In this document: piece by piece, positions 4,707 to 33,256 of the stretch
Position numbering within the stretch: position 1 is the first letter of the stretch
How the letters are laid out: every line of letters begins with the position of its first letter
Notes under the pieces: model-generated
Told to the model about the DNA's origin: nothing
Seen by the model: the letters and a program-made list of their open reading frames with translations, nothing else
Databases searched by the model: none
Translations under genes and position numbers: made by a program
NCBI RefSeq assembly: GCF_019599505.1
Contig: NZ_RKLT01000027.1
Location: forward strand, 1-37,173
Direction of reading: 5' to 3'
Source: Haloarcula nitratireducens
Lineage (GTDB): Archaea > Halobacteriota > Halobacteria > Halobacteriales > Haloarculaceae
Length of the DNA stretch: 37,173 nt

Positions 4707-5986
4707 AGTCGTGGGCTTGTCAGTGGACCCCCTTCAGCCGTCGAATCGACGGAGGAGTGGAGATCGCCGTTCAGGTTCAAAGTCCCTGACGTTAGCGCAC
4801 ACTGACAGGGTGCGCCTCCACTCGAAGACTTCTGCCCCGAATGGAGACGCTTGAGAAGTTTACGACCAATATTCTTGCTCGTGTTGTAATCCGCGTTCAG
4901 TTCATACTCGCACTTCTGGCACACGAATCGGTGTTTCGACCGTCGATTGTTCTCGTGGGTAAACCCACACGATGAACACCGCTGAGACGTGTACGCGGGA
5001 CTTACCTGTTCCACCTCGATTCCGTACATCTCGGCTTTGTATTCGACGTACTGGTAGAGGCGTCGGAACGCCCATGCGTGGAATCGTTTCGCACCAGCCA
5101 TCCGCTTGCGGATGTCGGTCAGGTTCTCGAACGCCATATGCGTACACTCGTGGTCACGGGCTTCGTCAAGAATCTGGTTCGAGCCACAGTGTAGTTCGTC
5201 CTGCATCCAGCGGTGTTCGCGGTCTTTCAGTGACTGACTCGATAAATGTGCCGACCGCGTGCCCGCTTGTTGTATCGACCCTCAAGTCTTCTCGTATTCC
5301 CGGCGTCGATGATTCATCTCATCAGCATTCCCGATGAACGCGCCTGTGGAAGTCACGGCGAACGAGCCACCCACGTTCAGGTCAACACCAAGGACTGTTC
5401 TGTGCTTGGCGTCAGAAGTAGTCGTAGACTGTTCTTTCTCGTCGTTTCCAGTTTGGCACATTCGTGCGTGGAGATAGAACGACTCTGTGGAGCGGTCGTA
5501 CTGCAACGTGGACATACGGAACTCGTAGTCCTCATTCAGCAGGTACTCACCAATCGGCGTCCCCTCGGTTCGTCGGGAAGCACGTAGTCACACTCGACAC
5601 GACCGTTCACTGTTGAAAGCGAAACGTGGTCACGGTGGAACGTCGCTGACCGCTTGTCGTAGACGACGCTCCACACATCGAAGTACGGTTGACTCGTGTT
5701 CTCTCCTTTCTTGAGTCGGGCGACACCACTTTTGATAGCCTCGATAGCGCGTCGTATACCTTTTTGAACGAGGTTCGCTGTCAACACCGTCTCGCCTCGA
5801 AGTCGCTTGTAGAGGGCGTTCTCGGTCGTTTTTTGAGGTCACGCAGTAGTCGTTCGGGTGTCTTCACGCTCACTCTGCGGTGGTGTTCGCACAGTAGAGA
5901 AACTGGTCTTTGGTCTGATAGAGGTCGTCGCACCGCTCTGTGGGTACGTTGAGTTTGACTTTGACGGTGTGAATTATATCCTCCAC
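4583..5986 (-). pseudogene. tnpB: Decayed TnpB (IS1341-type) RNA-guided endonuclease
   Basis: From a GTG at 5986 the sequence begins VEDIIHTVKVKLNVPTERCD and can be followed as TnpB to its C-terminal zinc ribbon, RCSSCGFTH with a second CQKC pair. The RuvC-type residues are still readable: Asp in VLGVDLNV, Glu in HMAFENLTD and Asp in NADYNTSKN. The frame is destroyed by at least five lesions: two TGG-to-TGA stops close together after CANTTAE, one extra A in an A-run (TSK-KTTAE expected), one missing base in DEP(E)GTPIG, and a CGA-to-TGA stop after REYEKT. The final frame stays open to 4583, beyond the element's end and into the antisense of the DUF1616 gene. No TnpA is present, so the copy cannot mobilise itself. 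Confidence 0.85.
4696..4715. repeat. Right-end hairpin of the TnpB element
   Basis: CCCATGAC-TGAA-GTCGTGGG is a hairpin with one T/G pair. It overlaps the stop codon of the DUF1616 gene. Confidence 0.65.
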
Positions 5987-7947: not shown

Positions 7948-8231
7948 GTGTCTCCAGACGATTGCGCGTTGATGATTTCTGGCATAGAGTTCTATGCTGG
8001 TCTTCTCATATTCGCCTCGTATCGCTGCTTCCGATAATATAGGGCAAAGAACATAAATAACTCTTTTCACCGAAATGTTATGTCATGGGAATCCGAACCG
8101 CGGAGTGGCTGAAATACACTCTTTCCCGCACCGCCCGGATTGAGTATCACGGTTTCCTAGTCTCTGCTATCCGGGGGCAGACCATTGCGCTGTCGAAGCA
8201 GTCGGTAGAGAGCGAGTGGGCGGCGACATCG

Positions 8232-9494
8232 CTACGAGTTACACTCGTCGAGGATAGCCTCGAGAAACGTCGTTTCGCGTCCAGGGACGAACGTGTCCCT
8301 GACGAACGACCGCTCGTTAGCGAACTCGTCGTGGCCATCAGTAATCGTCGCGAGTTCGTCGAGGAACGCGTCGAACGTCTCCGGTTTGGGTCCAGGGAAA
8401 TATCGTTCGTAGTCGAACGCCAGTCCGCGGACCGAAAGGAACCGTTCGTGGTCGTCTTTGAGGAAGATAACCGGGCGGTCGTACAGGAGAAAGGCTACGT
8501 AAATAGACGAGTAGTCAGTAATTAACCCGTCGAGATACGGCATCAGTTCGGTTGCTGAGTTTGCGAACGTCTGATCGGCGGAAAAAATCCGCTCGTCGTC
8601 GACGAGGTGGTCGTACTCAACATTCTCTTTTGGATGTGGGCGAAGAAACAGCCGCACGTCGTGCTCGTGACACCAGTCGCGTAGTCGCCCAGTATCAGCA
8701 TCTTCGAACGGTAAAAAAGTGGTCGTGTATGCACCGTCCTTGTGTGTCGGGGCGTAGAGAATGTCGGTGTAGTCTCCTTCCTCGAGCACTGCTTCAGCAT
8801 TCTCGGGCAGGACAGGGCTGGCGTCTCCGCCAATGAATCGTTGGATTCTGTCGAAACGCGGGTATCCCCACGTAGGGTACTGAGACGGGTGACAACCCTC
8901 TGCACTCGCCCGAAAATACTTTTCGCCTACGGATGCGACGGATCGGTACCTAGGTGCAGTGTCCGGCAGCGGTACACCGTCTCCGAACGAACTGGGTTCA
9001 GAGCCGGTGCGAGTGGATCCGTAGGCCTTTGTAATCGGTCCGTGGTAGAGGCGGACGTATCGGCGGTCGCTTCGGTCGAGCAGTCTGTACCACTTCAAGA
9101 ACTGGTTAGATTTACACAGGACTATCTCGCTCTGGGCGAGGGCGCGAAAGAAAGTCAGAGTGTGGAGCTCGGCGGACTCGGTTGTGACGTCGCTATCGTC
9201 CCAGTGGGTAAGCTGTGTATCGTCAATCCCCTGTGGTGAGAAGGCATACAACGCCCGTTCGGTATCGTCGACGGCAAGTTCGTTGAGCAGAGCAAAAGTG
9301 TCTGATTCCGGCTTTGTACCACGAATCAGGATGGTGATGTCTCGGCGGTCGTGGGACGTAAAGTGGTCGTAAAGGACGAAGACAAAGCAGAAGGGGAACC
9401 CAACCGTGTACAGATACGACATGATTCGAGACATCGTGTGTATAGCCTCGTTGTTGCGGAGCGTCTCACCGATCTGATTCAGGGGTTTCAGCAT
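8232..9494 (-). CDS. CDP-glycerol glycerophosphotransferase-like protein (TagB/TagF type)
   Basis: This 420-residue protein belongs, by its motifs, to the Glyphos_transf family (PF04464), which transfers glycerol- or ribitol-phosphate from CDP-linked donors to teichoic-acid chains in Gram-positive bacteria. The motifs run in order: RLYHGPITKAYG (~145), DILYAPTHKDG (~245), LFLRPHPKENV (~283), and DGLITDYSSIYVAFLLYDRP (~325), with its DYSS signature. The extreme N-terminus has a short hydrophobic segment (SYLYTVGFPFCFVFVLYDHF) that could be membrane-associated. It lies divergently from the small RHH-like protein and the two phosphatase-superfamily genes, so it could attach a phosphodiester-linked unit to the glycan. 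The actual donor is unknown. A different CDP-linked donor, such as one from the 16494-21012 module, is conceivable but unproven. Confidence 0.8.
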   Translation of the reverse strand: MLKPLNQIGETLRNNEAIHTMSRIMSYLYTVGFPFCFVFVLYDHFTSHDRRDITILIRGTKPESDTFALLNELAVDDTERALYAFSPQGIDDTQLTHWDDSDVTTESAELHTLTFFRALAQSEIVLCKSNQFLKWYRLLDRSDRRYVRLYHGPITKAYGSTRTGSEPSSFGDGVPLPDTAPRYRSVASVGEKYFRASAEGCHPSQYPTWGYPRFDRIQRFIGGDASPVLPENAEAVLEEGDYTDILYAPTHKDGAYTTTFLPFEDADTGRLRDWCHEHDVRLFLRPHPKENVEYDHLVDDERIFSADQTFANSATELMPYLDGLITDYSSIYVAFLLYDRPVIFLKDDHERFLSVRGLAFDYERYFPGPKPETFDAFLDELATITDGHDEFANERSFVRDTFVPGRETTFLEAILDECNS

Positions 9495-9996
9495 GATTCT
9501 ATGACACGAATATACTCTTCTTGTCTAATATTTATTTGGCTCGTCGAACCAACATCGAGGAACTGCAGTAAATCGCATCCAGACATAGCGCCACACCCAC
9601 AGTCGGATCAATCCATTCCACCGCCAAGCTCGACGTGCTCGGCTTTGACAGTACAAAACGACCTGCACCTAGACAGACCTGGTCGACCCGCGACTCGTTG
9701 CTCGATTGAGTGGTCAGTTGGTGCAATTCGATTCGACCACGTCCGTCACCCGGAAGTGTGCGTACCGTTCTCCCCAACAGCAGTAAGCGGCAGCGAAAAC
9801 GAGGTGGGCAGGAGCGATGTGTGGGATTTGGGACAGCCACATTCCACGACGAGATTACCACCGTTGTATCGGAACATCCAATCGTGGTCGGCCTGGCCAG
9901 TGACGATGGAATCGCTGCCTCTCCCGAGACAAACTCTATATCACCCCTATAGTTAAGAATATACGTGGTGAATTGACCTGTCAGGAGAACCTAATC
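9495..9996. other. Gene-poor intergenic stretch between divergent genes
   Basis: The 502-bp gap contains overlapping open frames on both strands (for example 9532-9861 minus). They show no recognisable motif and have Arg/Ser-rich compositions typical of shadow frames in haloarchaeal DNA. The segment AT-rich near 9505-9535 is the likely promoter of the minus-strand glycerophosphotransferase gene, and the AT-rich run near 9940-9965 that of the plus-strand small protein. Confidence 0.4.
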
Positions 9997-10230
9997 ATGA
10001 GGGTAGGAAAATCAGAGTGCAACGAGGTACTGTTGCCGAATCGGATTCTAAATCGGGTCGATCAGCGCGTCGAACACACGGAATTTGATTCGTCTGAAGA
10101 ATATATCACATACGTATTGGAGGAGGTTCTGTATCGTGTAGAAGAGAGTGCTGGAACAGATAGTGGGAACCCGGTCGCCGAAGAAGACGTAAAGAACCGG
10201 CTCCAATCGCTGGGCTATCTCGACGAATGA
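9997..10230 (+). CDS. Small ribbon-helix-helix-like protein of sulfatase loci
   Basis: The ATG at 9997 has a GGAG about 9 nt upstream and gives 77 residues; a TTG at 9973 is less likely. The middle reads VLLPNRILNRVDQRVEHTEF and SSEEYITYVLEEVLYRVEE, a strand followed by two helices as in ribbon-helix-helix DNA-binding proteins. The C-terminus, VKNRLQSLGYLDE, matches the ending of the second sulfatase-like protein (KLRALGYVE), a tail common in sulfatase-superfamily proteins. It precedes the two sulfatase-like genes on the same strand by 162 bp. A regulator of that unit or a small partner protein are both possible. Confidence is good that it is a gene and modest for the function. Confidence 0.65.
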   Translation: MRVGKSECNEVLLPNRILNRVDQRVEHTEFDSSEEYITYVLEEVLYRVEESAGTDSGNPVAEEDVKNRLQSLGYLDE

Positions 10231-10392
10231 CGACTCATCAACGCGATAGAACGCTCGGTCACACACCACACAGTGGTCTCGATAGACAGCCTCCACGTTG
10301 CAGCGTCGCGATAGCCACCGCGAGACTCGTGCTCGAATCGATAGCCATCGACGACGACCAGTGCGCCGAACGTAACGTCCGATTCAATCGAT

Positions 10393-11655
10393 ATGGTCGA
10401 TAAGAAAAACGTCGTTCTCGTTACGATCGATAGCATCCGGTACGATCGGTGCGGATTCGCCGGCACCGAGTCAGTGTCGACGCCAACCTTCGACAGGATG
10501 GCCCGTCAGGGACTGAACTTCAGAGATGCCATTGCACCGGGGGCTGCGACGCCTGACTCAGTGCCAGTAACTCTAACCGGTGAGTTTCCGCCGATGAAAA
10601 CTGACAACGCATATCTCAACGAGTGGGTCCAAAGCCAGTCAGGCGCTCGGCAGACGTTAGCTGAGAGATTCTCGAAGCGGGGCTACACGACAGGTGCGTT
10701 CACTGCGAATCCTTGGGCCTCACGTTACTTTGGTTTCGACAAAGGATTCGACTACTTCGAGGATTTCTTCGTGGATTCGGACTCGAACCGTCTGTTTTCG
10801 GGGGCTATCAGTGATGACTCGATACTCGTCGAGGCGAGTCGAAACGTCCACGATTGGGTCAAGGGACAGAATATGTTCATGTCGTGGGAAGCGTTCTACG
10901 ACGACGTCACGAACTGGACCGGCGGTGCGACAGAGCCATACTTCGTGTGGCTATTTCTCGTCGACGTTCACGTCCCGTACTATGCCGGTTCCGAATATCG
11001 TACACAATCCAATCTGCTACTCCTCGGCGCGAATCTATGGCTCTTCTTTCCGAAACTACAGTCGCTCGTTGCACCGTTCGACGACGTGCTCCTGAAAGCG
11101 TACGACAACTGTATTCGACACACAGACGAATTTTTGCGTCGCCTCGAGCAGGATGTCTCGAACGACGACACCCTCATCGCCGTCCACGGTGACCACGGTG
11201 ACGAGTTCGGGGAATTCGGGCGATACGGTCACGGCGGGGGGTTGAGTGAACCGCTACTGCACGTCCCATTTTTCGTTCAGAACGGACCCAACGTGTCGGT
11301 CGACGAGACCGTGTCTCTGCAGTCACTCCCAGACATCCTCCTCGATCTCGCGACCGAGAACACCGAGATCGGAGAGGTGAGCAACAAGTGGAGCGAACAG
11401 ATAGCAGTCTCGTGGATCGAAGAATCGGTGTCGATTCGAACGAGTGATTGGAAGTACATACACGATACGTCGACCGATACGGGAGAACTGTATCGAGTCG
11501 ACGCCCTCGCGGGGACGGAAGAACTGTGGAAAGACCCTCCGGAACCGCTCGTACGGGGGGTGTCTCAGCTAGCCGAGTCTGCTCACAGAGACCGACTCGA
11601 AAAACGGCGTATCGCCGAAGCAGCAGAAGCAACTGCCGAAGACAGCACGCTTTGA
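10393..11655 (+). CDS. Alkaline-phosphatase-superfamily (sulfatase-like) protein 1
   Basis: This 420-residue protein has the sulfatase fold: an N-terminal metal site in NVVLVTIDSIRYDRCGF and a C-terminal metal site in LIAVHGDHGDEFGEFG with a following GHGGG. The region where true sulfatases carry Cys/Ser-x-Pro-x-Arg reads APGAATPDSVPVTLTGEFPP. There is no Cys and no trailing Arg, so the formylglycine mechanism is unlikely. A Thr or Ser nucleophile would suit a phosphodiesterase or a phospho-group transferase of the LtaS/MdoB kind. There is no obvious signal peptide or membrane helix, which suggests a cytoplasmic location. The start at 10393 is the first ATG, just before the metal-binding strand. 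It sits 4 bp before its paralogue and probably shares its transcript. Confidence 0.8.
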   Translation: MVDKKNVVLVTIDSIRYDRCGFAGTESVSTPTFDRMARQGLNFRDAIAPGAATPDSVPVTLTGEFPPMKTDNAYLNEWVQSQSGARQTLAERFSKRGYTTGAFTANPWASRYFGFDKGFDYFEDFFVDSDSNRLFSGAISDDSILVEASRNVHDWVKGQNMFMSWEAFYDDVTNWTGGATEPYFVWLFLVDVHVPYYAGSEYRTQSNLLLLGANLWLFFPKLQSLVAPFDDVLLKAYDNCIRHTDEFLRRLEQDVSNDDTLIAVHGDHGDEFGEFGRYGHGGGLSEPLLHVPFFVQNGPNVSVDETVSLQSLPDILLDLATENTEIGEVSNKWSEQIAVSWIEESVSIRTSDWKYIHDTSTDTGELYRVDALAGTEELWKDPPEPLVRGVSQLAESAHRDRLEKRRIAEAAEATAEDSTL

Positions 11656-11659
11656 ACGC

Positions 11660-12856
11660 ATGAAGGACCTCTCACGGCTCACATCCGTCGATTCGGTCGA
11701 CAACGTACTGATATACATCTCCGATAGTCTCAGATACGACTCATTACCAGAGTCCATCTCTTCTCTCGGAGTGACGGCCCGTGCGATTGCGCCAAGCACG
11801 CTTACAGCATCTAGTGTCCCGTCGATTCTCACGGGGCAGTTCCCCCATGAACACAAAGTATGGGGCTTCTCCGGGCAACTTCGGGAGGTGCCCCATCTTC
11901 TCAGCACTGCCCACTCGTCGGGTGTGAACGTCGAACGGGTCTGGGGAAACGAGTACGAATTGAACGAGAAACCGACCCTAACACTCCTCAACCTAGACGA
12001 GCATACAGCGTTTAGCGAACTCGAGCAGCCGTTTACCTACGTTATACACGATCACGGCGGACATTCTCCATACGGAGAAGCGGGTGAGCGTTTCAAGCCG
12101 TCGAGAAAGTTCTTCACCGAGAACCGGAACGACGAAACGTCGATCAGGACACAGTATCGTGACGGAGTTAGCCAGTCAGTCGACCGTTTCCGATCGATTT
12201 ACCGGCGGCTTCGAGACAGAGACGAGCTAAACAACACGCTAGTCGTATTTACCAGTGACCACGGAGAATTACTCGGCGAGTACGGTGGGCTATACGAACA
12301 CACCAGCCCGATGGTCCCTGAACTCCTGGAGGTCCCCCTCGTATTCTGTGGAGCGGGACTCCCGAGGGACGTCACATACGAGACGCTGCTGTCTAGTCTA
12401 GATATTGCACCGACGCTCCTCGGTGCGCAGAATCGCCCCGTCCCCAGTTCGATGGGTGGCTTGGATCTCTGGAACGGGACTCGATCCGAGAGGCCGATCC
12501 GGGCGGACGTATGGCGGCGTTCGAGTTACGGCGATCGCATCCGCTATGCTGCCAGTTCGGTCTGGGACGAAAAAGGAGGGATAGTGGTTCATAGAGGGCC
12601 CCGAACGGGGCGCCTCGTATTTGCTCTGGGGGCGAATCTGTACGTTGCACCGTACGCGCCGATCGTTCGGAAGCGGGCAGTCTCGAACGTCAGAAAGATG
12701 CTTTCAGTGTTTCTTCCTCAGACAGTGATGTACGGGGAATACGAGGGAGATATTTCCGCAGAGGAACTCTCACGACCAGAGTTTAGAGCGAACCGAGATG
12801 CAGAGCAAGTCGACGTCGACTCCGAGAAGTTGCGCGCGCTCGGATACGTCGAGTAA
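11660..12856 (+). CDS. Alkaline-phosphatase-superfamily (sulfatase-like) protein 2
   Basis: This 398-residue paralogue of the preceding protein lies in the same operon (4-bp gap). The metal-binding segments are VLIYISDSLRYDSL near the N-terminus and LVVFTSDHGELLGEYGG near residue 200. The putative nucleophile region, IAPSTLTASSVPSILTGQFP, again lacks the Cys/Ser-x-Pro-x-Arg sulfatase signature. A conserved HDHGGHSPYG block lies at ~130. The C-terminus ends VDSEKLRALGYVE, a tail shared with the small protein at 9997. Family members in archaeal glycan loci are usually annotated only as sulfatases; here the neighbouring glycerophosphotransferase-like gene makes handling of a phosphodiester more plausible than sulfate removal (inference). 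Confidence 0.8.
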   Translation: MKDLSRLTSVDSVDNVLIYISDSLRYDSLPESISSLGVTARAIAPSTLTASSVPSILTGQFPHEHKVWGFSGQLREVPHLLSTAHSSGVNVERVWGNEYELNEKPTLTLLNLDEHTAFSELEQPFTYVIHDHGGHSPYGEAGERFKPSRKFFTENRNDETSIRTQYRDGVSQSVDRFRSIYRRLRDRDELNNTLVVFTSDHGELLGEYGGLYEHTSPMVPELLEVPLVFCGAGLPRDVTYETLLSSLDIAPTLLGAQNRPVPSSMGGLDLWNGTRSERPIRADVWRRSSYGDRIRYAASSVWDEKGGIVVHRGPRTGRLVFALGANLYVAPYAPIVRKRAVSNVRKMLSVFLPQTVMYGEYEGDISAEELSRPEFRANRDAEQVDVDSEKLRALGYVE

Positions 12857-13177
12857 CTGATGTCGAAACGGTACCAGAAAGACTCGTAGCACCGGGTTTT
12901 CCTGAATCAGTCAGCGTCGCAGTTCGGGGAGAGACGAGGACGTCGAGCGGTTCAGGTGATAATTCTTTACGCTGTTGGTAGCCGTCCAGCGGCTTTGGCA
13001 ACCCGATGATGTATTCGGCCACGTCTCGCAGGGCCGCACGCACGAGCTACCGGAATCAGCGACCGAAAACGAGAGAGGCCCCTCGATACGCTCGCCTTCT
13101 ACCACTCTGAGTTGCTGGATAGCATCTGTCTGCTTGACGATACCGAGTTCGAAGTGGGAGTTGAGGACGGCGTGCTG
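12857..13177. other. Convergent intergenic region with a short possible gene relic
   Basis: This lies between the plus-strand sulfatase operon and the minus-strand flippase. It has no complete gene. A coding-like plus-strand segment starts at 13064 (see the next entry). No clear terminator hairpin is seen. Confidence 0.4.
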
Positions 13178-13213
13178 TTACGACAAATTCTCGATCAAAC
13201 GCCGGTCAGTTGA
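13064..13213 (+). pseudogene. Possible C-terminal relic of an unknown gene
   Basis: One plus-strand frame reads RPLDTLAFYHSELLDSICLL and then DDTEFEVGVEDGVLLRQILD, ending QTPVS with a TGA at 13211-13213. Its acidic composition and helix-like pattern look like a genuine haloarchaeal protein tail, but no N-terminal part is found upstream. Its last ~36 nt overlap the end of the convergent flippase gene. I do not recognise the family, and chance is not excluded. Confidence 0.25.
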
Positions 13214-14632
13214 GTCAAACCCGATATAATAAATCACGACGCAAAAGACCGGAAGGGAAAGGAGTCCACTGACAAATACGACTACGATACTGTGACTCAG
13301 GAACAGCTCTCCGACCAACATCAGAGGGAATGCCGTGGTAATCGCAATCGCTCCTTTCCAATAATCACGAACGTAGGGTCGAACGTCGAGGAACCACCAG
13401 GTCTCTGCGAGACGCAGGACACTCAGCAGTACCAGCGACCCCCCAGTGGCGAGTGCTGCCCCTAGTACACCGAGTTCCTGGATGAGAACGTAGTTCAGAA
13501 CCACGTTAGTGGCTGCCACTACGAGAGTGTTTGTCATCTCCACTTGTTCGTGATCGGTCATCATCAGTAGGAATCCCGCTGGACCCACAGCGGTGGCAAA
13601 TGTGAAGGCTCCCGCAAGTAAGGTAAGCACGACCCAGACATCTGTGAACTCGTTGCCGAACAGCGTGAGGATGTTAGAAGCGTTCACCACGAGGAACACT
13701 AGCCCCAGGGCAGTCAGGTAGGTGAGCCACTTTGTCAACGCAGCGTACATCTCTCGTAGCCGGTCCATCTGACCTTTATCGTATAGATCTGAGGCTACTG
13801 ACGGGAAGATACTGTTCGCGGCTCCGATTAGAAAGCCGAGAATCACTGCGGTCTGATACGCGACCTGATAGCGGCCGATTCCAGCGGGCGTGCCAAACGC
13901 TCCGAGCATGAGCACGTCCGTCCATTGCATGAGATACTGAGCGAGCGCAGCGATAGTGAGTGGGGTCGAGTATTTGAGTATCTGACGAACCTCGAAGACG
14001 GGGTCAGAAATTCCGTCAAATCCACCCAGGTTGTGCAAGAAATATAGCGCGAGTCCTGCTGCGACGACCAGAGAGAACACGTATCCGACGATGGTGGCTT
14101 CTACTGTCCCAATCACGACGGTCCCGATGACGACGAAAACGATCGCCGAGAGACTCTGTCCGATATCTTTTATCAACACCGAGTATTTCGTCTGGATGAA
14201 ACCTGTTGTCGCTACCTGTCCGACAGTCATCAAAGCCATGAACGGAATGCCGGCGAGAAACAGCATCGTCGTCGCATCCAGTGATTGCGAAAAATAGGTC
14301 TCGACGAAGTCCGACCCCAGATAGAGAAACAGACTGACCGAGATACCCAGACAGAACGGGACGACGAGACTGATCAGCAGTGTCCCTGTTAGCAACGCAT
14401 CGTCACTCGACTCCCTGTATATCGGGACGAATTTCCTGACAGCCTTATCTAACCCGATTTTCGACACTGTCGCCCCGATGTTCAATATAACGAAACCGAA
14501 AGTGAACAACCCGAGGGACTCGGCTCCGAGATATCGACCGATGACGATGTAGATACCGTACTGTAAGCCGCTACCCAGTAATCGACCGATAAAACTAATC
14601 GAAATGAGGCTTCTGAGATTTCTCGTTAGCAC
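13178..14632 (-). CDS. Oligosaccharide flippase, Wzx/MOP type
   Basis: The 484-residue protein is almost entirely membrane helices (about 12-14). The N-terminus, NLRSLISISFIGRLLGSGLQ, and the following VIGRYLGAESLGLFTFGFVI match the polysaccharide-transport (Wzx/RfbX, MOP superfamily) family. These proteins flip lipid-linked glycans across the membrane; AglR is the related flippase candidate in Haloferax N-glycosylation. The start is a GTG at 14632 immediately before the first helix. It lies 91 bp downstream of the epimerase gene on the same strand and is probably co-transcribed with it. It is likely the exporter for the glycan built by this island. Confidence 0.9.
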   Translation of the reverse strand: MLTRNLRSLISISFIGRLLGSGLQYGIYIVIGRYLGAESLGLFTFGFVILNIGATVSKIGLDKAVRKFVPIYRESSDDALLTGTLLISLVVPFCLGISVSLFLYLGSDFVETYFSQSLDATTMLFLAGIPFMALMTVGQVATTGFIQTKYSVLIKDIGQSLSAIVFVVIGTVVIGTVEATIVGYVFSLVVAAGLALYFLHNLGGFDGISDPVFEVRQILKYSTPLTIAALAQYLMQWTDVLMLGAFGTPAGIGRYQVAYQTAVILGFLIGAANSIFPSVASDLYDKGQMDRLREMYAALTKWLTYLTALGLVFLVVNASNILTLFGNEFTDVWVVLTLLAGAFTFATAVGPAGFLLMMTDHEQVEMTNTLVVAATNVVLNYVLIQELGVLGAALATGGSLVLLSVLRLAETWWFLDVRPYVRDYWKGAIAITTAFPLMLVGELFLSHSIVVVFVSGLLSLPVFCVVIYYIGFDSTDRRLIENLS

Positions 14633-14723
14633 GAGTAACCACGGTCACGTCGGACCGTCAGATAGAGCCGTCTGGGTCTTCGATACTGCCTATTCAACCC
14701 GGATTGCACTGGACCACGCACCG

Positions 14724-15695
14724 TTAGTCTAGGTACTTCTCACGGTTACTCTTATAGAAGTCGACGGTTTTCTCCAGTCCCTCTTCCAGGTCGACCGACG
14801 TCGACCATCCGAGTTGCTCCTCTATCTTCGACGGGTCGATGACGACGTCTCCGCGACGAATGCCTTGCCACGTCTCTGTCCAGGGAACTAACTCCAGCGA
14901 GCCGCCCCCTGCAGTGTCGGTCACCAACTCGGCGGCTTGCTTCATCGTTCTCGACTCACCCGTTCCCAGGACGTATTTCTCACCGATGGCTCGGTCGTCC
15001 TGGCCGATATGCGTGAGGGCATCGACCATATCTTCGATGAACAAGAAATCTCGCAGGTCGCTCGGTTCGAAGACCGACAGCGACTCGTCCCGTAACGCAT
15101 CGCCGACGAACTGGTTGATGATGCCGTAGCCAGTGTCGTGCAGGGGGGCACGCGGTCCGTACAGATTCGCCGGCCGGACGACCGTCGTCGGGACGTCCTT
15201 CAGCCGAGTGTATAGTTGGCAGTAGTCCTCGACGGTACGCTTGTGAATTCCGTACATGTCGACCGGTTTCGGTTCGGTACTCTCGTCGATTGTCCCCGGA
15301 ACGTTCCCGAGCGTCGCCAGCGAACTCACGTACACCACTCTAGGCGGGTTGCCGAGGTCTGCGGCCGACTCAAGGACGTTCAGCGGGCCGCCACAGTTTA
15401 TTTGGAGATTCTTTCGGGGTTCCTCGTTGGCCGCGGGTCGACTGCTCTTTGCAGCCAGGTGGTAGACGGTATCGGCTTCCGAAACGTAGTTTCGAATCGG
15501 TTCTTCTTCCCGGACATCCACGTCAGCGATTTCTACATCGTCTCTGATATCCTCGACTGTCAGGAGCTTCTCTTCCCGAACGGTATCTAACAAGACCACG
15601 TCCGCGCCTTCGTCTAACATCCGTCGGGCGAGGTTGCTTCCAGCGAATCCGAGACCACCAGTTATCAAGACACGTTGGTCGTTCCAATCTACCAT
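14724..15695 (-). CDS. NAD-dependent nucleotide-sugar epimerase/dehydratase (extended SDR)
   Basis: From the ATG at 15695 (MVDWNDQRVLITGGLGFAGS) the protein has 323 residues. The Rossmann motif TGGLGFAGS is near residue 11 and the catalytic Tyr-x3-Lys is in MYGIHKRTVEDY (~150). RPANLYGPRAPLHD follows and is typical of UDP-glucose/GalNAc 4-epimerase or dTDP-glucose-dehydratase relatives. The frame stays open upstream to 15968, but that part has no SDR character and a TATA box (15718-15725) lies within it, so the shorter start is right. Exact substrate cannot be read from sequence. It is the first gene of a two-gene unit with the flippase. Confidence 0.85.
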   Translation of the reverse strand: MVDWNDQRVLITGGLGFAGSNLARRMLDEGADVVLLDTVREEKLLTVEDIRDDVEIADVDVREEEPIRNYVSEADTVYHLAAKSSRPAANEEPRKNLQINCGGPLNVLESAADLGNPPRVVYVSSLATLGNVPGTIDESTEPKPVDMYGIHKRTVEDYCQLYTRLKDVPTTVVRPANLYGPRAPLHDTGYGIINQFVGDALRDESLSVFEPSDLRDFLFIEDMVDALTHIGQDDRAIGEKYVLGTGESRTMKQAAELVTDTAGGGSLELVPWTETWQGIRRGDVVIDPSKIEEQLGWSTSVDLEEGLEKTVDFYKSNREKYLD

Positions 15696-16493: not shown

Positions 16494-19400
16494 ATGGAGT
16501 CACCACAGATCGTAATTTTAGGTGCCGGACAGCCGTTTGTAGGGACGGAGCCATCTGCGCTGATTCACACGTCGGGTGACAAGCGTGTTCTCGACTGGGT
16601 ACTCGAGGCTTTCAAACAAGCGCTCGAAGACCCAGAGTTTCATTTCGTAGGCGGGTATCGAATAACCGAGATTGTAGGAGCCTATCCCGACATTCACTTT
16701 TCACAGAACGAAGATTGGGACAGTTCCGGAACTGTGGCATCCCTTTTTACTGCGCCCATTTCCGCAGAACGGCCGGTGTATATGTGTTACTCCGACACCA
16801 TTTTTGAAGAAAATGCTGTAAAAGCGATAGAGGGAACGACCGCCATCGCTGTCGACGGAAACTGGAGAACCCGATACAAGAATCGTTCTGACGAAAGCTT
16901 AGAACGCGCCGAGAAAGTGCAAACCATTGGCGAATCCGTCAGAGAGGTCGGGACGGATATCGAGGTGAACGATTCGACCGCAGAGTTCACCGGATTACTG
17001 CGTTTGTCGCCGGAGGCTGTCGAACAAGCGCAAAAGCTGTGGGAGTCAGGTATCGTCGATTCGGATGCAGATATCCCAGATTTATTACGCGCATGTATTG
17101 ACGCAGATGTCGAGATCGGGGCAGTCGATATAAACGGACACTGGGCCGAACTGGAATCCGCCGAGGACCTGTCCCGGTTCGTTCTCGATACGAAGGCGAA
17201 CACGCTGCGACGGCTCCGGTCGATGGTCGAACAGAGTACAATTCTCGACCAATATACCGTTACAGTCGACCAGTGGAATACGAGTCCAGACGAGGTTACA
17301 TCAGCTATAGGCGACTATTTCGCCGGTGAGCGAGTCATCGTTCGAAGTAGTGCCCTCGACGAAGACGGCTGGAACGAATCGAATGCTGGACGGTTCGAAA
17401 GCGTTCTTGACGTCCCATCCCACGAGAGACAGGCAGTAAAGAACGCTATCACCAAAGTGACAGACTCCTACACCGATTCCAATCCGGAGAATCAGGTGCT
17501 GGTTCAACCGATGATCGACAGCGTCGAGCAGAGTGGTGTCATCATGACACGCTCGCTCGACACGGGGAGTCCGTACTACATCATCAACTACGATGCGACG
17601 ACCACGAGTACCGAGTCAGTAACCGATGGGACGGGTAAACACTTACAGACCGCCGTCGTCCGAAAGGATCAATTCGATACCGAGGAGCACGTTGAACCGA
17701 CACCACAACACCCGTCAAACCTGTCGCTGGGACCGTTGCTGCAAGCAGTACGTGAGATAGAGACGTTGATTGGGCACGACAGCCTCGACATCGAATTCGC
17801 CATCGACGATAACGGAGAGGTATTTGTCTTGCAGTCTCGGCCGATGACGCTTGACCCGGCCGAAAGGACAGTTGACGATAAAAACCTATTCGAAGCGGTC
17901 GATCGAGGCCGTGAAGAGTTCGTCGAGTCACAGTCTCCCACGCCGTTCCTCCTCGGCGACCGAACCATCTATGGCGTCATGCCGGACTGGAATCCGGCCG
18001 AAATTATCGGACGGCAGTGCCGGCGACTCGCGGCGTCGATATATCAATACTTGATCATGGATGAGGTATGGGCACAGCAGAGAGCCGAATACGGGTATCG
18101 AGATGTCCGGCCGCATCCACTTATGAAGCGATTCGCCGGCCAACCCTACGTCGATATCCGTGCGGATTTCAATTCGTTCGTCCCGGCTTCGGTCCCTGAC
18201 GAACTGGCTGAGCGACTCGTGCAGTATTATCTGAATCGACTGGAATCTCACCCCGAACTGCACGATAAAGTCGAATTCGAAGTAGTGCTGACGTGTCTTA
18301 CCTTCAATTATCGTACTCAGATTCAGCCGATGATAGATGCAGGCTTTACGAAAGAAGAACTAATCCCCCTCCGTGACGGACTCCGGGAGATTACGCTCGA
18401 AGCTTTCAGCCGGATTGACGAGGATATACGTAAAATAGAGCGCCTGGATAGGCGACATACGGAGATATGCAACAGTGATCTCTCGCCACTCAAGTCGGCC
18501 TCCTTTCTACTCAGAGACTGTCGTAGACTCGGAACGTTACCGTTCGCGCATCTGGCTCGGACAGCTTTTGTCGCCACGTCTCTCCTTCGCTCATTAGAAC
18601 GCATCGGAGTATTGACCGCAACCCAGAAACAGGAGTTTCAGAACTCGCTGGACACGGTTGCGCGGCAGTTCGAACGCGATGGTCAGCGGGTTGCAGAAGA
18701 TAATTTAGCATGGGATACGTTCGTGGAACGGTACGGTCACTTACGGCCGGGTACCTACGAGATCACATCGGCGAGGTACAAACAAAATCCTGAAAAATAT
18801 CTTACTCCGGTCGTCAACAACACACACGAAGCGATACCAAAACGTGACCCGACCGAGATCTGGTCGGAGGACACGAAAGAGCAAATAGAGCATGAACTGT
18901 CACGAATCGGGCTGCCCACAGACACTGATACTTTCATCGAATTCCTCGCTAAGGCCATCGAAGAACGTGAACACTCAAAGTTCGTCTTCTCGCGGAACCT
19001 GAGTGAGGCGCTTGAACAAATCGCGGAGTTCGGACAGAATCACGGACTTTCACGGGAGGAGCTATCGCATATCCCTCTCGAAATGTTCCTCAAACTGTCC
19101 CGAGAGCACCCCCCAACTGATGTCACAGCGTGGCTCACAGAACAGGCTAACGAGGGTAGAGAACAGTATACGACCACTTGTGCTGTCGAACTACCCCCGA
19201 TTCTCTTTGACGAGAGTGATTTCACCGTGTTCGAACGTCCTGCCCGTGAGCCGAACTTCGTCACAAATAACAGGATTTCCGCGGAAATCATCGAATTGGA
19301 AGGTGCAGATTCCTCCGCTGAAGATATAGACGGAAAAATAGTAGTTATAAAAAAGGCGGACCCAGGCTATGATTGGCTCTTCGGACATGATGTCGCCGGT

Positions 19401-19565
19401 CTGGTGACGATGTATGGAGGTGCAAACTCCCACATGGCTGTTAGGGCAGCTGAGTTCTCTTTACCCGCTGCAATCGGCATCGGCGAAAATCGATACGAGC
19501 TGTTACAAAAGTCAGAGATCATCGAACTCGACTGTTCAAAGCAATCGATTGAGGTGGTTCAATGA
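16494..19565 (+). CDS. Glutamine-kinase-like phosphohistidine enzyme with N-terminal nucleotidyltransferase-like domain
   Basis: A 1023-residue fusion. Residues ~1-235 form a nucleotidyltransferase-like fold (QIVILGAGQPFVG, YMCYSDTIFEENA, VDINGHWAELES) but lack the G-x-G-T-R-L and P-K-P residues of active enzymes. Residues ~275-465 are a PPDK_N ATP-grasp domain: RVIVRSSALDEDG, VLVQPMIDSVEQSGVIM, DIEFAIDDNGEVFVLQSRP. A mostly helical middle follows. The C-terminus is the swivelling phosphohistidine domain, GGANSHMAVRAAEF, with His980 (codon 19431-19433). There is no C-terminal PEP-binding barrel, so this is not PEP synthase. C. jejuni Cj1418, L-glutamine kinase, has this kind of ATP-grasp plus His architecture, and its partners Cj1417 and Cj1416 correspond to the next two genes. 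Proposed reaction: ATP + L-glutamine to glutamine phosphate + AMP + Pi. The ATG at 16494 directly precedes the first strand; an in-frame ATG at 16446 is less likely. Rifampin-phosphotransferase-like activity is the main alternative. Confidence 0.75.
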   Translation: MESPQIVILGAGQPFVGTEPSALIHTSGDKRVLDWVLEAFKQALEDPEFHFVGGYRITEIVGAYPDIHFSQNEDWDSSGTVASLFTAPISAERPVYMCYSDTIFEENAVKAIEGTTAIAVDGNWRTRYKNRSDESLERAEKVQTIGESVREVGTDIEVNDSTAEFTGLLRLSPEAVEQAQKLWESGIVDSDADIPDLLRACIDADVEIGAVDINGHWAELESAEDLSRFVLDTKANTLRRLRSMVEQSTILDQYTVTVDQWNTSPDEVTSAIGDYFAGERVIVRSSALDEDGWNESNAGRFESVLDVPSHERQAVKNAITKVTDSYTDSNPENQVLVQPMIDSVEQSGVIMTRSLDTGSPYYIINYDATTTSTESVTDGTGKHLQTAVVRKDQFDTEEHVEPTPQHPSNLSLGPLLQAVREIETLIGHDSLDIEFAIDDNGEVFVLQSRPMTLDPAERTVDDKNLFEAVDRGREEFVESQSPTPFLLGDRTIYGVMPDWNPAEIIGRQCRRLAASIYQYLIMDEVWAQQRAEYGYRDVRPHPLMKRFAGQPYVDIRADFNSFVPASVPDELAERLVQYYLNRLESHPELHDKVEFEVVLTCLTFNYRTQIQPMIDAGFTKEELIPLRDGLREITLEAFSRIDEDIRKIERLDRRHTEICNSDLSPLKSASFLLRDCRRLGTLPFAHLARTAFVATSLLRSLERIGVLTATQKQEFQNSLDTVARQFERDGQRVAEDNLAWDTFVERYGHLRPGTYEITSARYKQNPEKYLTPVVNNTHEAIPKRDPTEIWSEDTKEQIEHELSRIGLPTDTDTFIEFLAKAIEEREHSKFVFSRNLSEALEQIAEFGQNHGLSREELSHIPLEMFLKLSREHPPTDVTAWLTEQANEGREQYTTTCAVELPPILFDESDFTVFERPAREPNFVTNNRISAEIIELEGADSSAEDIDGKIVVIKKADPGYDWLFGHDVAGLVTMYGGANSHMAVRAAEFSLPAAIGIGENRYELLQKSEIIELDCSKQSIEVVQ

Positions 19566-20200
19566 GTCGTGTGGGAATCACACAGCGAGTCACTGTCATC
19601 GAGGAGTATGGGGAACGGAGAGACTGTTTGGATCAGCAGTGGACGGTGCTTTCCGAGAAGTTGGGACACACACCATACCCACTTCCGAATCAAATTACAA
19701 ACGTCGAACGCTACTTGAATGAGATCAGTGTCGACGCTCTCGTATTGACCGGAGGGAATGACCTAACGACAGTACCTTCGCCATCAAGGCCCGCCGCCGA
19801 ACGGGATAAGTTCGAAGAGGCAGTCCTAGAGTATGCTATCTCCAAACGAGTAGCCGTATTAGGTGTGTGTCGTGGACTGGAACTAATAAACGCGTATTTC
19901 GGTGGTGAGATAGTCGAGGTAAGCAATCATACAAACGAAACCCATAGCATCAATCTGGATGACGAGAGGACCCAACTCCAACTACCGGAGCGAGCAGCAG
20001 TAAATAGTTACCACGGCTACGGAATCGAACCGACTGGAGTTGCCGATAGTCTACAAGGATTTGCTACTGCACCGGATTCGACGGTAGAAGGTGTCGTTCA
20101 CGAGAGTCTCCCGATATGGGGAATCATGTGGCACCCCGAACGAGAGTCGCCTTCGACATCACTAGACCGTCACATTCTCGACCATGTGCTGGGAAACTAG
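19562..20200 (+). CDS. Class I glutamine-amidotransferase-like hydrolase (CDP-glutamine hydrolase candidate)
   Basis: This 212-residue protein overlaps the kinase by 4 nt (ATGA). It is a peptidase C26 / gamma-glutamyl hydrolase-type protein: VLTGGNDLTT (~62), nucleophile elbow GVCRGLELINAYFGG with Cys103, NSYHGYGIEP (~144), and the His191/Glu193 pair in IMWHPERE. In C. jejuni the equivalent, Cj1417, hydrolyses CDP-L-glutamine to glutamate and cytidine diphosphoramidate, the activated P-N donor. Its position between the glutamine-kinase-like gene and the nucleotidyltransferase gene supports that role. Alternative: degradation of gamma-glutamyl-GABA (PuuD-like), for which the surroundings give no support. 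No synthetase domain is attached, so it is a stand-alone hydrolase. Confidence 0.75.
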   Translation: MSRVGITQRVTVIEEYGERRDCLDQQWTVLSEKLGHTPYPLPNQITNVERYLNEISVDALVLTGGNDLTTVPSPSRPAAERDKFEEAVLEYAISKRVAVLGVCRGLELINAYFGGEIVEVSNHTNETHSINLDDERTQLQLPERAAVNSYHGYGIEPTGVADSLQGFATAPDSTVEGVVHESLPIWGIMWHPERESPSTSLDRHILDHVLGN

Positions 20201-20205
20201 TATCG

Positions 20206-21012
20206 ATGACAGAAGATAAATCTCCGCAAGCGGTCCACCTCGCAGCCGGACAAGGAACACGGTTGCGCCCCCTCACAAACGACCGTCCGAAACCGTTGGT
20301 AACGCTCGGAGGAACGTCGCTACTCGAACGGAATATGCAAACACTGCGCGGCTGCGGGGTGACTGACCAGGTTGTTGTCACCGGACACTGTTCTGAAAAG
20401 ATTCGGTCGTTAGGATGTCAGACGGTCCACAACCCCAACTTTGCCGAGACCGACATGGTATACAGCCTCTTCTGTGCTGCTGCGCGTTTCTCCACGGATC
20501 GGGATTTGGTCATTTCATACGGTGATATCGTCTACGAAGAGTCTGTGGTCCAGTCGCTCCTCGATCGGTGTGCACCACTCAGTGTCGTCGTCGATAGAGA
20601 CTGGCAGCGGCTGTGGAAGACTCGGTTTGAGGACCCGCTTTCAGACGCCGAGTCGTTACGGCTGACGGACGACGATGCAATCGTCGAGATTGGTCGTGAT
20701 GTCGATGGCTTTGACGAGATTGACGGGCAGTACATCGGTTTGATCAAAGTGGAATCAGACTTCATAGATCAATTCGAAACCGTGTATCAGGATATAGTCG
20801 GCGAGGCGTCCAGCAGAGACAAATCTATCGAGATGACTCAGTTTCTCCAAACGTTCATTGATCGAGGACACGACGTCGCAGCAGTTCCGATCAACGGAGG
20901 GTGGCTAGAAGTCGACACGGTCAGCGATCTTGAACAGTATTGGCACCTCTACTCGAACGATGAGCTTGACAGGTTTATAGATTTAGAGCAGTCTGAGCAC
21001 TCTCAGTCGTGA
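20206..21012 (+). CDS. Nucleotidyltransferase (CTP:phosphoglutamine cytidylyltransferase candidate)
   Basis: The ATG at 20206, 5 nt after the hydrolase stop, gives 268 residues; the frame extends upstream but only into the hydrolase gene. The N-terminus has the full sugar-nucleotidyltransferase signature HLAAGQGTRLRPLTNDRPKP with Arg19 and Lys29. Downstream are NFAETDMVYSLFCAA, VISYGDIVYEESV (metal Asp) and GGWLEVDTVSDL (second metal site). The ETDMVYSL element and the overall plan match the phosphocholine-cytidylyltransferase-like subgroup, which includes C. jejuni Cj1416, the enzyme that makes CDP-L-glutamine from CTP and glutamine phosphate. The N-terminal domain of the 16494 protein is a diverged relative of this one. 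The last gene of the three-gene unit. Confidence 0.75.
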   Translation: MTEDKSPQAVHLAAGQGTRLRPLTNDRPKPLVTLGGTSLLERNMQTLRGCGVTDQVVVTGHCSEKIRSLGCQTVHNPNFAETDMVYSLFCAAARFSTDRDLVISYGDIVYEESVVQSLLDRCAPLSVVVDRDWQRLWKTRFEDPLSDAESLRLTDDDAIVEIGRDVDGFDEIDGQYIGLIKVESDFIDQFETVYQDIVGEASSRDKSIEMTQFLQTFIDRGHDVAAVPINGGWLEVDTVSDLEQYWHLYSNDELDRFIDLEQSEHSQS

Positions 21013-33220: not shown

Positions 33221-33256
33221 GTTTGTGTAGACATAATTCCAGTGGAGACTTACACG

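What the first reader, a model, noticed from the sequence alone, without database searches (positions are those of the whole stretch)
16494..21012. Haloarchaeal phosphoramidate (CDP-amidate) biosynthesis module in a surface-glycan island
Seen: an ATP-grasp/phosphohistidine kinase without a PEP barrel, a Cys-His-Glu gamma-glutamyl-hydrolase-type protein and a phosphocholine-cytidylyltransferase-like enzyme. The first two genes overlap by 4 nt and the third follows after 5 nt. Known: in Campylobacter jejuni, L-glutamine kinase (Cj1418), CTP:phosphoglutamine cytidylyltransferase (Cj1416) and CDP-glutamine hydrolase (Cj1417) convert glutamine to cytidine diphosphoramidate for capsule O-methyl phosphoramidate. 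Inferred: this archaeon makes the same activated P-N donor and places phosphoramidate on its surface glycan. I know of no described archaeal case.
Basis: partly seen in the sequence, partly recalled or inferred. Interest (0 to 1): 0.95.

Follow-up and report, generated by a model that had tools for sequence, protein, structure and literature searches.

The report
Archaeal phosphoramidate genes in glycan island
A salt-loving archaeon carries, side by side in a surface-sugar gene island, relatives of the three Campylobacter enzymes that turn glutamine into an activated phosphorus-nitrogen group, and a nearby teichoic-acid-type transferase that is predicted to put this group on surface sugars, which would be a new use of this rare chemistry in archaea.

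Summary
In detail: at 16494-21012 lie a glutamine-kinase-type enzyme, a gamma-glutamyl-hydrolase-type enzyme (4-nt overlap) and a phosphocholine-cytidylyltransferase-type enzyme (5-nt gap). The kinase scores 934.8 bits against NF004508 (cut-off 501) and 41.6 against the rifampin-kinase model (cut-off 999). The hydrolase's best model is gamma-glutamyl-CDP-amidate hydrolase, but below its cut-off (131.9 against 250). Identity to four Campylobacterota trios is 32-39%. (1) The kinase's first ~225 residues are a cytidylyltransferase fold without key active-site residues; such a domain is fused in 64 of 98 loci. (2) A TagF-like protein (PF04464, window 8232-9494): relatives abut the trio on the same strand in 31 of 47 loci measured. 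No Campylobacter-type 3'-kinase or methyltransferase gene was found in the window or the five haloarchaeal loci of its kinase clade. Best reading: glutamine, ATP and CTP probably give CDP-amidate, and the TagF-like enzyme is predicted to move an unmethylated phosphoramidate onto a glycan. Against: the TagF-like gene is 7 kb away here, and only two of those five loci carry its close subfamily. No activity is shown. New variant of a known kind.

The parts
16494..19565 (+). Glutamine-kinase-type enzyme (ATP-grasp + phosphohistidine domain, no PEP barrel), 1023 aa
   Evidence: NF004508 934.8 bits vs cut-off 501 over residues 225-1022; Pfam PF01326 + PF00391; 34-37% identical to four Campylobacterota kinases; AlphaFold model pLDDT 86.4
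16494..17180 (+). N-terminal domain of the kinase (residues 1 to about 229): cytidylyltransferase fold with degraded active site
19562..20200 (+). Class-I glutamine-amidotransferase-fold hydrolase, predicted gamma-glutamyl-CDP-amidate hydrolase, 212 aa; Cys103, His191, Glu193
   Evidence: best NCBIfam model NF045546 E 3e-38, 131.9 bits, below cut-off 250; triad positions kept in 93, 92 and 92 of 93 hydrolases
20206..21012 (+). Cytidylyltransferase of the phosphocholine-cytidylyltransferase type, predicted CTP:phosphoglutamine cytidylyltransferase, 268 aa
   Evidence: 33-39% identical to the Campylobacterota enzyme beside the kinase; nearest solved relatives 6pd1 and LicC 1jyk; R19, K29, D107, D237 present, invariant in 109 of 109 rows
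8232..9494 (-). TagF/TarL-like phosphotransferase (PF04464), 420 aa: candidate phosphoramidate transferase
   Evidence: PF04464 125.8 bits vs cut-off 22.1; nearest PDB folds TagF and TarL; relatives abut the trio in 31 of 47 loci
13178..14632 (-). Polysaccharide flippase-type membrane protein (context)
   Evidence: PF01943
14724..15968 (-). NAD-dependent sugar epimerase/dehydratase (context)
   Evidence: PF01370
22411..25088 (+). RmlC-like epimerase, RmlA-like nucleotidylyltransferase, epimerase/dehydratase (context)
   Evidence: PF00908, TIGR01208 417.4 bits over cut-off 320.25, PF01370
28151..32394 (+). Five glycosyltransferase-type genes: GT2-type, Alg14-like, GT28-C-like, two GT4-type (context)
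   Evidence: Pfam

Best explanation
This haloarchaeal gene set likely makes CDP-amidate from glutamine, ATP and CTP, and a TagF-like enzyme encoded in the same island is predicted to transfer an unmethylated phosphoramidate group from it to a surface glycan. Steps: (1) the kinase, through its conserved histidine (His980), would phosphorylate the amide nitrogen of glutamine; (2) the cytidylyltransferase would couple the product to CTP; (3) the Cys-His-Glu hydrolase would remove glutamate and leave CDP-NH2; (4) the PF04464 protein would pass the phosphoramidate to a sugar hydroxyl and release CMP. The N-terminal domain of the kinase looks like a degraded cytidylyltransferase and is likely non-catalytic; it may hold the labile phosphoglutamine near the real cytidylyltransferase or sense nucleotides. 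Shown: the genes, their families, predicted folds and conservation. Inferred: all four reactions, the donor of step 4 and the glycan target.
For: Kinase: NF004508 934.8 bits (cut-off 501), next family 56.7 bits; a Campylobacterota kinase next to an equivalog hydrolase scores 1096 with the same model. 115 columns are at least 90% conserved in both kinase sets and the window agrees in 112; 64 of the 115 lie in the middle region 470-930. Trio conserved: hydrolase 93, cytidylyltransferase 92 of 98 loci. Hydrolase: best model gamma-glutamyl-CDP-amidate hydrolase, E 3e-38 against 2.5e-13 for the next. TagF-like protein: a PF04464 match lies within 10.9 kb of the kinase in 6 of 8 haloarchaeal kinase genomes and 7.0 kb from the trio in the window; relatives abut a trio gene on the same strand in 31 of 47 loci measured. 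In a clustering made without reference to any family, the largest cluster after the three trio genes is TagF-like (22 of 67 loci, 14 directly downstream of the cytidylyltransferase; no other listed cluster has more than 1), and 18 of 39 genes directly downstream of the cytidylyltransferase are TagF-like. Of 38 genomes with the gene that I searched, 1 has a glycerol-3-phosphate cytidylyltransferase over the TIGR01518 cut-off, so CDP-glycerol is an unlikely donor.
Against: The hydrolase is under the equivalog cut-off (131.9 of 250). The kinase clade of the window is not the Campylobacter clade and the papers seen report no assay of a member. In the window the TagF-like gene is 7 kb away on the other strand. 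Of the five haloarchaeal relatives in its kinase clade, only G313 and G070 carry the close (module-type) subfamily; G104 has a different PF04464 protein 10.9 kb away (112.5 bits with the subfamily model), G134 only pieces in two ORFs (79.4 bits), and G001 a weak one 9.5 kb away (34.6 bits with Pfam, none with the subfamily model at 1e-20). The subfamily also occurs in one of 383 haloarchaeal genomes without the kinase (G308, near a contig end), and an 85% identical protein is in Haloarcula sp. JP-L23, whose kinase status I could not test. 23 of 64 fused loci had no TagF-like gene at the threshold (some contigs end early). The apparent mutual exclusion with the Campylobacter-type genes is not significant once relatedness is allowed for. 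Loci are not independent (for example L002/L039, L013/L054, L021/L023/L024/L028). Confidence was lowered from 0.62 to 0.60 when the G001 and G134 results were written out.
Confidence: 0.6

Rival explanations
1. The trio makes CDP-amidate, but the TagF-like protein is an ordinary CDP-polyol phosphotransferase; the phosphoramidate is moved by another, unrecognised enzyme, or ends in a small molecule or lipid rather than a glycan.
For: The gene is not adjacent in the window and was not found beside part of the trios; three of the five haloarchaeal relatives lack the close subfamily and one haloarchaeal genome has the subfamily without the kinase; an Allorhizobium plasmid has a LysE translocator and a CDP-alcohol phosphatidyltransferase after the trio instead.
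Against: 31 of 47 loci have it abutting the trio on the same strand; it is the most frequent further family in 67 loci; 37 of 38 genomes searched lack a TagD over the cut-off; the window lies in a glycan island.
Confidence: 0.32
2. The kinase phosphorylates another amide or amine and the cytidylyltransferase another phosphate, so that the product is not CDP-amidate.
For: The enzymes are only 32-39% identical to the Campylobacterota ones; the hydrolase fails the equivalog cut-off; related cytidylyltransferases act on phosphocholine and phosphonates (titles of 1jyk, 6pd1).
Against: The middle region keeps 64 conserved columns across both kinase sets; a gamma-glutamyl-type hydrolase goes with the pair in 93 of 98 loci, which fits a gamma-glutamyl intermediate.
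Confidence: 0.13
3. The organism makes the full Campylobacter-type O-methyl phosphoramidate, and the 3'-kinase, methyltransferases and transferase lie elsewhere in its genome.
For: The whole genome of the window is not held, so absence cannot be shown; Haloferax elongans has an APS-kinase-like gene directly after the cytidylyltransferase; two of the four Campylobacterota loci also lack the APS-kinase-like gene within the 20 kb fetched.
Against: 0 of 64 fused loci had a methyltransferase like those of L125 within the flanks, against 23 of 34 others; no APS-kinase-like hit in the window or in the loci of G001, G134, G313, G104 and G070.
Confidence: 0.06

Closest known systems
Campylobacter jejuni CDP-phosphoramidate pathway (Cj1418 glutamine kinase, Cj1416, Cj1417, Cj1415); passages of PMC11800397, PMC6429109 and PMC10971088 seen; the C. 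jejuni sequences themselves were not fetched by name
   Same: Same three enzyme families and same gene order kinase-hydrolase-cytidylyltransferase as in the Campylobacterota loci L123-L126, also among surface polysaccharide genes in C. jejuni (papers).
   Different: N-terminal cytidylyltransferase-like domain on the kinase; none of the L125 neighbours (3'-kinase-like, methyltransferase-like, 610-aa proteins) found in the window; TagF-like protein; archaeal host. That these neighbours equal Cj1415, Cj1419/1420 and Cj1421/1422 is recalled and inferred from position.
Vibrio alfacsensis plasmid pYa108 locus (L001)
   Same: Fused kinase (about 40% identical), hydrolase, phosphocholine-type cytidylyltransferase and CDP-glycerol glycerophosphotransferase family protein in a row, next to glycosyltransferases.
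   Different: Bacterial; four genes contiguous; annotated only by generic names.
TagF/TarL teichoic acid polymerases (PDB 3l7i-m, 8va1)
   Same: Predicted fold and PF04464; two histidines (H151, H287) are invariant in the 46-row alignment.
   Different: 420 aa; 37 of 38 host genomes searched have no CDP-glycerol synthase over the cut-off; relatives found beside the trio.
Rifampin phosphotransferase RPH (PDB 5fbs, 5hv1)
   Same: Best Foldseek match of the whole kinase model (E 2.2e-22, TM 0.33 on the query).
   Different: 15% identity; 41.6 bits against the rifampin model with cut-off 999.

Membership tests
L-glutamine kinase type (NF004508/PRK05849; that Cj1418 belongs here is recalled, its sequence was not fetched by name) | Score over curated cut-off | tested here: met
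   934.8 vs 501 bits
L-glutamine kinase type (NF004508/PRK05849) | ATP-grasp plus His mobile domain, no PEP barrel | tested here: met
   PF01326 and PF00391 only; His980 conserved
L-glutamine kinase type (NF004508/PRK05849) | Same subclade as the Campylobacter-type kinases (not required by the model) | tested here: not met
   Window in a haloarchaeal clade within a clade of 61 mostly fused rows; Campylobacterota in a separate clade of 24 rows (midpoint root, no outgroup)
L-glutamine kinase type (NF004508/PRK05849) | Phosphorylates glutamine amide nitrogen | not testable with these tools
   needs assay
gamma-glutamyl-CDP-amidate hydrolase equivalog (NF045546) | Score over curated cut-off | tested here: not met
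   131.9 vs 250 bits; three fused-type relatives 126.0-127.8
gamma-glutamyl-CDP-amidate hydrolase equivalog (NF045546) | Cys-His-Glu triad | tested here: met
   C103, H191, E193
CTP:phosphoglutamine cytidylyltransferase (Cj1416 type) | Resembles the cytidylyltransferase beside the Campylobacterota kinase, with active-site residues present | tested here: met
   33-39% identity over about 250 aa; R19, K29, D107, D237 invariant in 109 of 109 rows
CTP:phosphoglutamine cytidylyltransferase (Cj1416 type) | Accepts phosphoglutamine | not testable with these tools
   needs assay
Complete Campylobacter O-methyl phosphoramidate pathway | 3'-kinase-like, methyltransferase-like and 610-aa proteins of the L125 locus | tested here: not met
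   No window hit with queries from L125; rest of genome not held, and the 610-aa queries hit Campylobacterota only, so that absence is weak
PF04464 Glyphos_transf (TagF-like) | Score over gathering cut-off and TagF-like fold | tested here: met
   125.8 vs 22.1 bits; TagF and TarL top folds, TM 0.60-0.66 on the query
CDP-glycerol phosphotransferase (function) | CDP-glycerol donor made in the host | tested here: inconclusive
   TagD over cut-off in 1 of 38 relatives' genomes; the window's own genome not held; CDP-ribitol route not tested
Rifampin phosphotransferase (NF041857) | Score over curated cut-off | tested here: not met
   41.6 vs 999 bits
PEP synthase (TIGR01418) | Score over curated cut-off, PEP barrel | tested here: not met
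   47 vs 739.75 bits; no barrel domain

The most novel reading that the evidence does not exclude
There is a second, widespread phosphoramidate system in bacteria and archaea, distinct from the Campylobacter one: a glutamine kinase fused to a dead cytidylyltransferase, a live cytidylyltransferase, a hydrolase, and a TagF-like enzyme that moves bare phosphoramidate (not methylated, not via a 3'-phosphorylated donor) from CDP-NH2 onto surface glycans, the first TagF-type enzyme with a P-N donor and the first P-N glycan in archaea.
Probability: 0.44. Interest if true: 0.87.

Novelty: new variant of a known kind. Interest (0 to 1): 0.72.

Why it matters
O-methyl phosphoramidate on surface sugars was, in the 2019 review seen (PMC6429109, passages), reported only from Campylobacter. 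If right, the chemistry reaches haloarchaea and several bacterial phyla, the missing transfer step gets a testable candidate of a well-studied structural family, and named haloarchaea (Natronomonas pharaonis, Natrarchaeobius, Natrarchaeobaculum) become direct test objects by 31P NMR. It would also sharpen generic annotations such as PEP-utilizing enzyme, ATP-grasp fold protein and CDP-glycerol glycerophosphotransferase.

Tried and rejected
Rejected: rifampin phosphotransferase or PEP synthase. Rejected: that the three-gene set is a chance neighbourhood. Considered and not established: mutual exclusion of TagF-like gene and Campylobacter-type genes. The raw table is striking (3 with both TagF-like and APS-kinase-like, 47 and 23 with one only, 25 with neither; Fisher 2e-6), but over independent pairs on the tree (TagF-like against APS-kinase- or methyltransferase-like) the median p is 0.5. 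Led nowhere: promoter and terminator scan (no more sites than shuffles); search for the window's TagF-like protein in 146 genomes of the family of G104 (none; an empty answer proves little); the primary Raushel papers are not held, so catalytic residues of Cj1418 could not be mapped by number; paper searches (homologues, Lachnospiraceae; archaeal CDP-glycerol transferases and glycosylation) found no paper; searches gave listings that I did not open. Several PF04464 hits whose coordinates fell in a locus range were on other contigs; they were removed by checking the ORF in the locus DNA. The profile was trained on hits in these same loci, so its counts lean towards them; two of its new members tested are below the Pfam gathering score (L018, L007). 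In 'unfused' includes kinases cut by a contig end or split (L003, L047, L055, L060, G135) and G290, which bears another domain; two kinase rows under 700 aa (L003, G135) were left out of the tree. The probability of the novel case was lowered from 0.45 to 0.44 and of the first rival raised from 0.30 to 0.32 on recount of the haloarchaeal subfamily results.


Full report
What is there. The window holds three genes in one direction at 16494-21012: a 1023-aa kinase-type protein, a 212-aa hydrolase that overlaps it by 4 nt, and a 268-aa cytidylyltransferase-type protein 5 nt further on. Pfam finds the ATP-binding domain PF01326 and the phosphohistidine domain PF00391 but no PEP barrel in the first, Peptidase_C26/GATase in the second and MobA/NTP_transferase in the third. 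The surroundings are a surface-glycan island: flippase, epimerases, RmlA- and RmlC-like proteins, a carbamoyltransferase, sulfatase-family proteins and five glycosyltransferase-type genes. The host is haloarchaeal by the company of its kinase in the tree and by a PGF-CTERM protein; its genome is not held.

Are they the glutamine kinase, CDP-glutamine hydrolase and phosphoglutamine cytidylyltransferase? The kinase scores 934.8 bits with NF004508 (cut-off 501) against 41.6 with the rifampin model (cut-off 999) and 47 with PEP synthase (cut-off 739.75). As an anchor I used Campylobacterota genomes in which the hydrolase passes the gamma-glutamyl-CDP-amidate hydrolase equivalog cut-off (54 of 298 genomes drawn from the phylum; unnamed, so I do not claim that C. 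jejuni itself is among them). In one of them (L125) the kinase scores 1096 with the same model and the hydrolase 324.8, and the neighbours are two methyltransferase-like proteins, an APS-kinase-like protein (NF004041 272.3 bits, cut-off 127) and two proteins of about 610 aa. Of the four Campylobacterota loci read, all have methyltransferase-like genes and two have the APS-kinase-like gene within 20 kb. Window proteins are 34-37%, 32-33% and 33-39% identical to the kinase, hydrolase and cytidylyltransferase of these four loci. 115 columns of the kinase are at least 90% conserved in both the Campylobacter-type set (21 rows; L108 and L082 left out of the 23 with methyltransferase-like neighbours) and the fused set (64 rows), and the window agrees in 112. 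The hydrolase keeps Cys103, His191 and Glu193 and its best model is the CDP-amidate hydrolase, E 3e-38 against 2.5e-13 for the next, but it stays below the cut-off, 131.9 of 250, as do three other fused-type hydrolases tested (126.0-127.8). So it works like that enzyme on present evidence; I do not file it in the equivalog.

How common. Through the kinase I collected 98 loci: 78 of the 80 genome-contig loci as units (L006 and L053 enter as haloarchaeal units), 7 plasmid loci (of 14 plasmid records hit), 8 haloarchaeal genomes, the window and 4 Campylobacterota loci; L002 and L039 carry identical kinase sequences and were both kept. Hydrolase is found in 93, cytidylyltransferase in 92, the N-domain in 64. 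In Halobacteria 8 of 391 sampled genomes have the kinase, one of them (G135) only a C-terminal piece. In the tree of 96 kinases (L003 and G135 too short) the window groups with SHRA6 (G001), G134, Natrarchaeobius (G313), Natronomonas pharaonis (G104) and Natrarchaeobaculum (G070) in one clade (SH-aLRT 100) inside a clade of 61 rows, 57 of them fused and, apart from these six, bacterial (100); the Campylobacter-type kinases form another clade of 24 rows (100); seven fused rows lie outside both (quick search, midpoint root, no outgroup). A transfer from bacteria into haloarchaea is the simple reading. Haloferax elongans (G002) and G290 lie elsewhere in the tree.

The transfer step. The window has a TagF-like protein at 8232-9494 (PF04464 125.8 bits, cut-off 22.1; nearest PDB folds TagF and TarL, E 3.0e-18 and 6.3e-18). 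A profile of the haloarchaeal module-type subfamily finds it above 400 bits in 4 of 391 genomes, the next score being 124 bits; three of the four (G313, G070, G290) have the kinase, the fourth (G308) does not. The profile was made from the window and the loci of those three genomes, so the informative part is that only 1 of 383 other genomes has it. Against: G104, G134 and G001, the other three of the window's kinase clade, score 112.5, 79.4 (a piece) and nothing at 1e-20 with this profile. In bacteria a related protein lies next to the trio: of 50 loci with it, 47 could be measured and 31 have it within 300 nt of a trio gene on the same strand, as in the Vibrio alfacsensis plasmid. To guard against choosing what I looked for, I clustered 1116 genes of 67 loci (the 64 fused ones and three with a truncated kinase) without reference to any family: after kinase (65 loci), cytidylyltransferase (55) and hydrolase (53) the largest family is the TagF-like one (22 loci; 14 directly downstream of the cytidylyltransferase, against 0 or 1 for every other cluster listed); 18 of the 39 genes directly downstream of the cytidylyltransferase are TagF-like. 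The glycerol-3-phosphate cytidylyltransferase that would supply CDP-glycerol passes its cut-off in 1 of 38 genomes that carry the TagF-like gene (the genomes of ten further such loci, L029, L049, L050, L055, L061, L070, L080, L081, L083 and L126, and the two plasmid hosts were not searched); weaker matches in 22 of the 38 are below cut-off, and several of these genomes are metagenome assemblies. I therefore propose that CDP-amidate is the donor. The reaction itself is inferred.

Difference from Campylobacter. The papers seen (passages of PMC11800397, PMC6429109 and PMC10971088) give Cj1418 as L-glutamine kinase and Cj1415-1418 as the route to a 3'-phosphorylated CDP-phosphoramidate, and link Cj1421 and Cj1422 to its placement. 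That the L125 neighbours correspond to Cj1415, Cj1419/1420 and Cj1421/1422 is recalled and inferred from order and size. Queries from L125 for the APS-kinase-like, methyltransferase-like and 610-aa proteins hit nothing in the window or in the loci of its five haloarchaeal clade relatives. Over the 98 loci, methyltransferase-like genes occur in 0 of 64 fused and 23 of 34 other loci; TagF-like and APS-kinase-like genes occur together in 3, singly in 47 and 23, neither in 25. This split follows the tree, and an independent-pairs test is not significant (median p 0.5), so I state it as a pattern of clades, not as proof of exclusion. Among eight Campylobacterota genomes searched, four have a PF04464 match, one of them (G648) directly beside its hydrolase gene, so the TagF-like type is not foreign to that phylum.

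Literature. Searches of the open PMC library for phosphoramidate with haloarchaea (1 paper, passages read), with archaea, glycan and CDP (20 of 110 listed), for L-glutamine kinase, CDP-amidate and related terms (15 papers), for archaeal CDP-glycerol transferases and glycosylation (none) and for glutamine kinase with archaea (2 papers, passages of both read) showed no archaeal case in what I saw; subscription journals are mostly not held. Two database proteins of the fused type already carry the source name glutamine kinase (P0083, P0111), so part of the assignment is known to annotation pipelines.

Verdict. A real, conserved module; very probably a CDP-amidate-forming trio; a new variant (fused kinase, TagF-like candidate transferase, archaeal host). 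Unproven: every reaction and the glycan target.

Noticed in passing
L082 (Candidatus Pacearchaeota contig), 8707-12361 and following: A DPANN-archaeal contig with the unfused kinase, hydrolase, cytidylyltransferase, APS-kinase-like and methyltransferase-like genes: a Campylobacter-type set in an archaeal bin (bin error not excluded).
   Followed up: partly
L119/L053 (Haloferax elongans), 11916-17077 of L119: Fused kinase, hydrolase and cytidylyltransferase followed directly by an APS-kinase-like gene: a second, separate haloarchaeal version.
   Followed up: partly
L120 (G290), 12372-15260: Glutamine-kinase-type protein with an N-terminal PF01467 cytidylyltransferase-like domain instead of the usual one.
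   Followed up: partly
G648:C54:53301-55281 (Campylobacterota; part in L099): PF04464 matches directly beside the equivalog-scoring hydrolase gene, so a TagF-like protein also neighbours a Campylobacterota trio.
   Followed up: no
L003 (Allorhizobium plasmid), 7938-13017: Kinase split into two ORFs, then hydrolase, cytidylyltransferase, a LysE translocator and a CDP-alcohol phosphatidyltransferase: possibly a lipid or small-molecule acceptor.
   Followed up: no
L005 (Cupriavidus taiwanensis plasmid), 7947-10310: Glutamine-kinase-type gene without a hydrolase or cytidylyltransferase hit in the 18 kb read, on a plasmid with nif genes.
   Followed up: no
window 10393-12856: Two PF00884 sulfatase-superfamily genes; the second has relatives beside TagF-like genes in G313 and near the trio in G001. 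Could modify or remove the group.
   Followed up: partly
P0123, Haloarcula sp. JP-L23: 85% identical relative of the window's TagF-like protein; no equally close kinase is among the 120 listed, so it may occur there without the trio.
   Followed up: partly
G134:C1:574544-576729 and G135:C31:15422-16066: PF04464 matches in two separate ORFs in G134; only a C-terminal kinase piece in G135: possible decay of the system.
   Followed up: partly
window 4583-5206 (-): TnpB-like fragment (PF07282 Cas12f1-like_TNB), a sign of mobile DNA in the island.
   Followed up: no
window 33242-34483 (+): 413-aa protein with no Pfam or NCBIfam match at the thresholds used, tail-fibre-like by eye.
   Followed up: no
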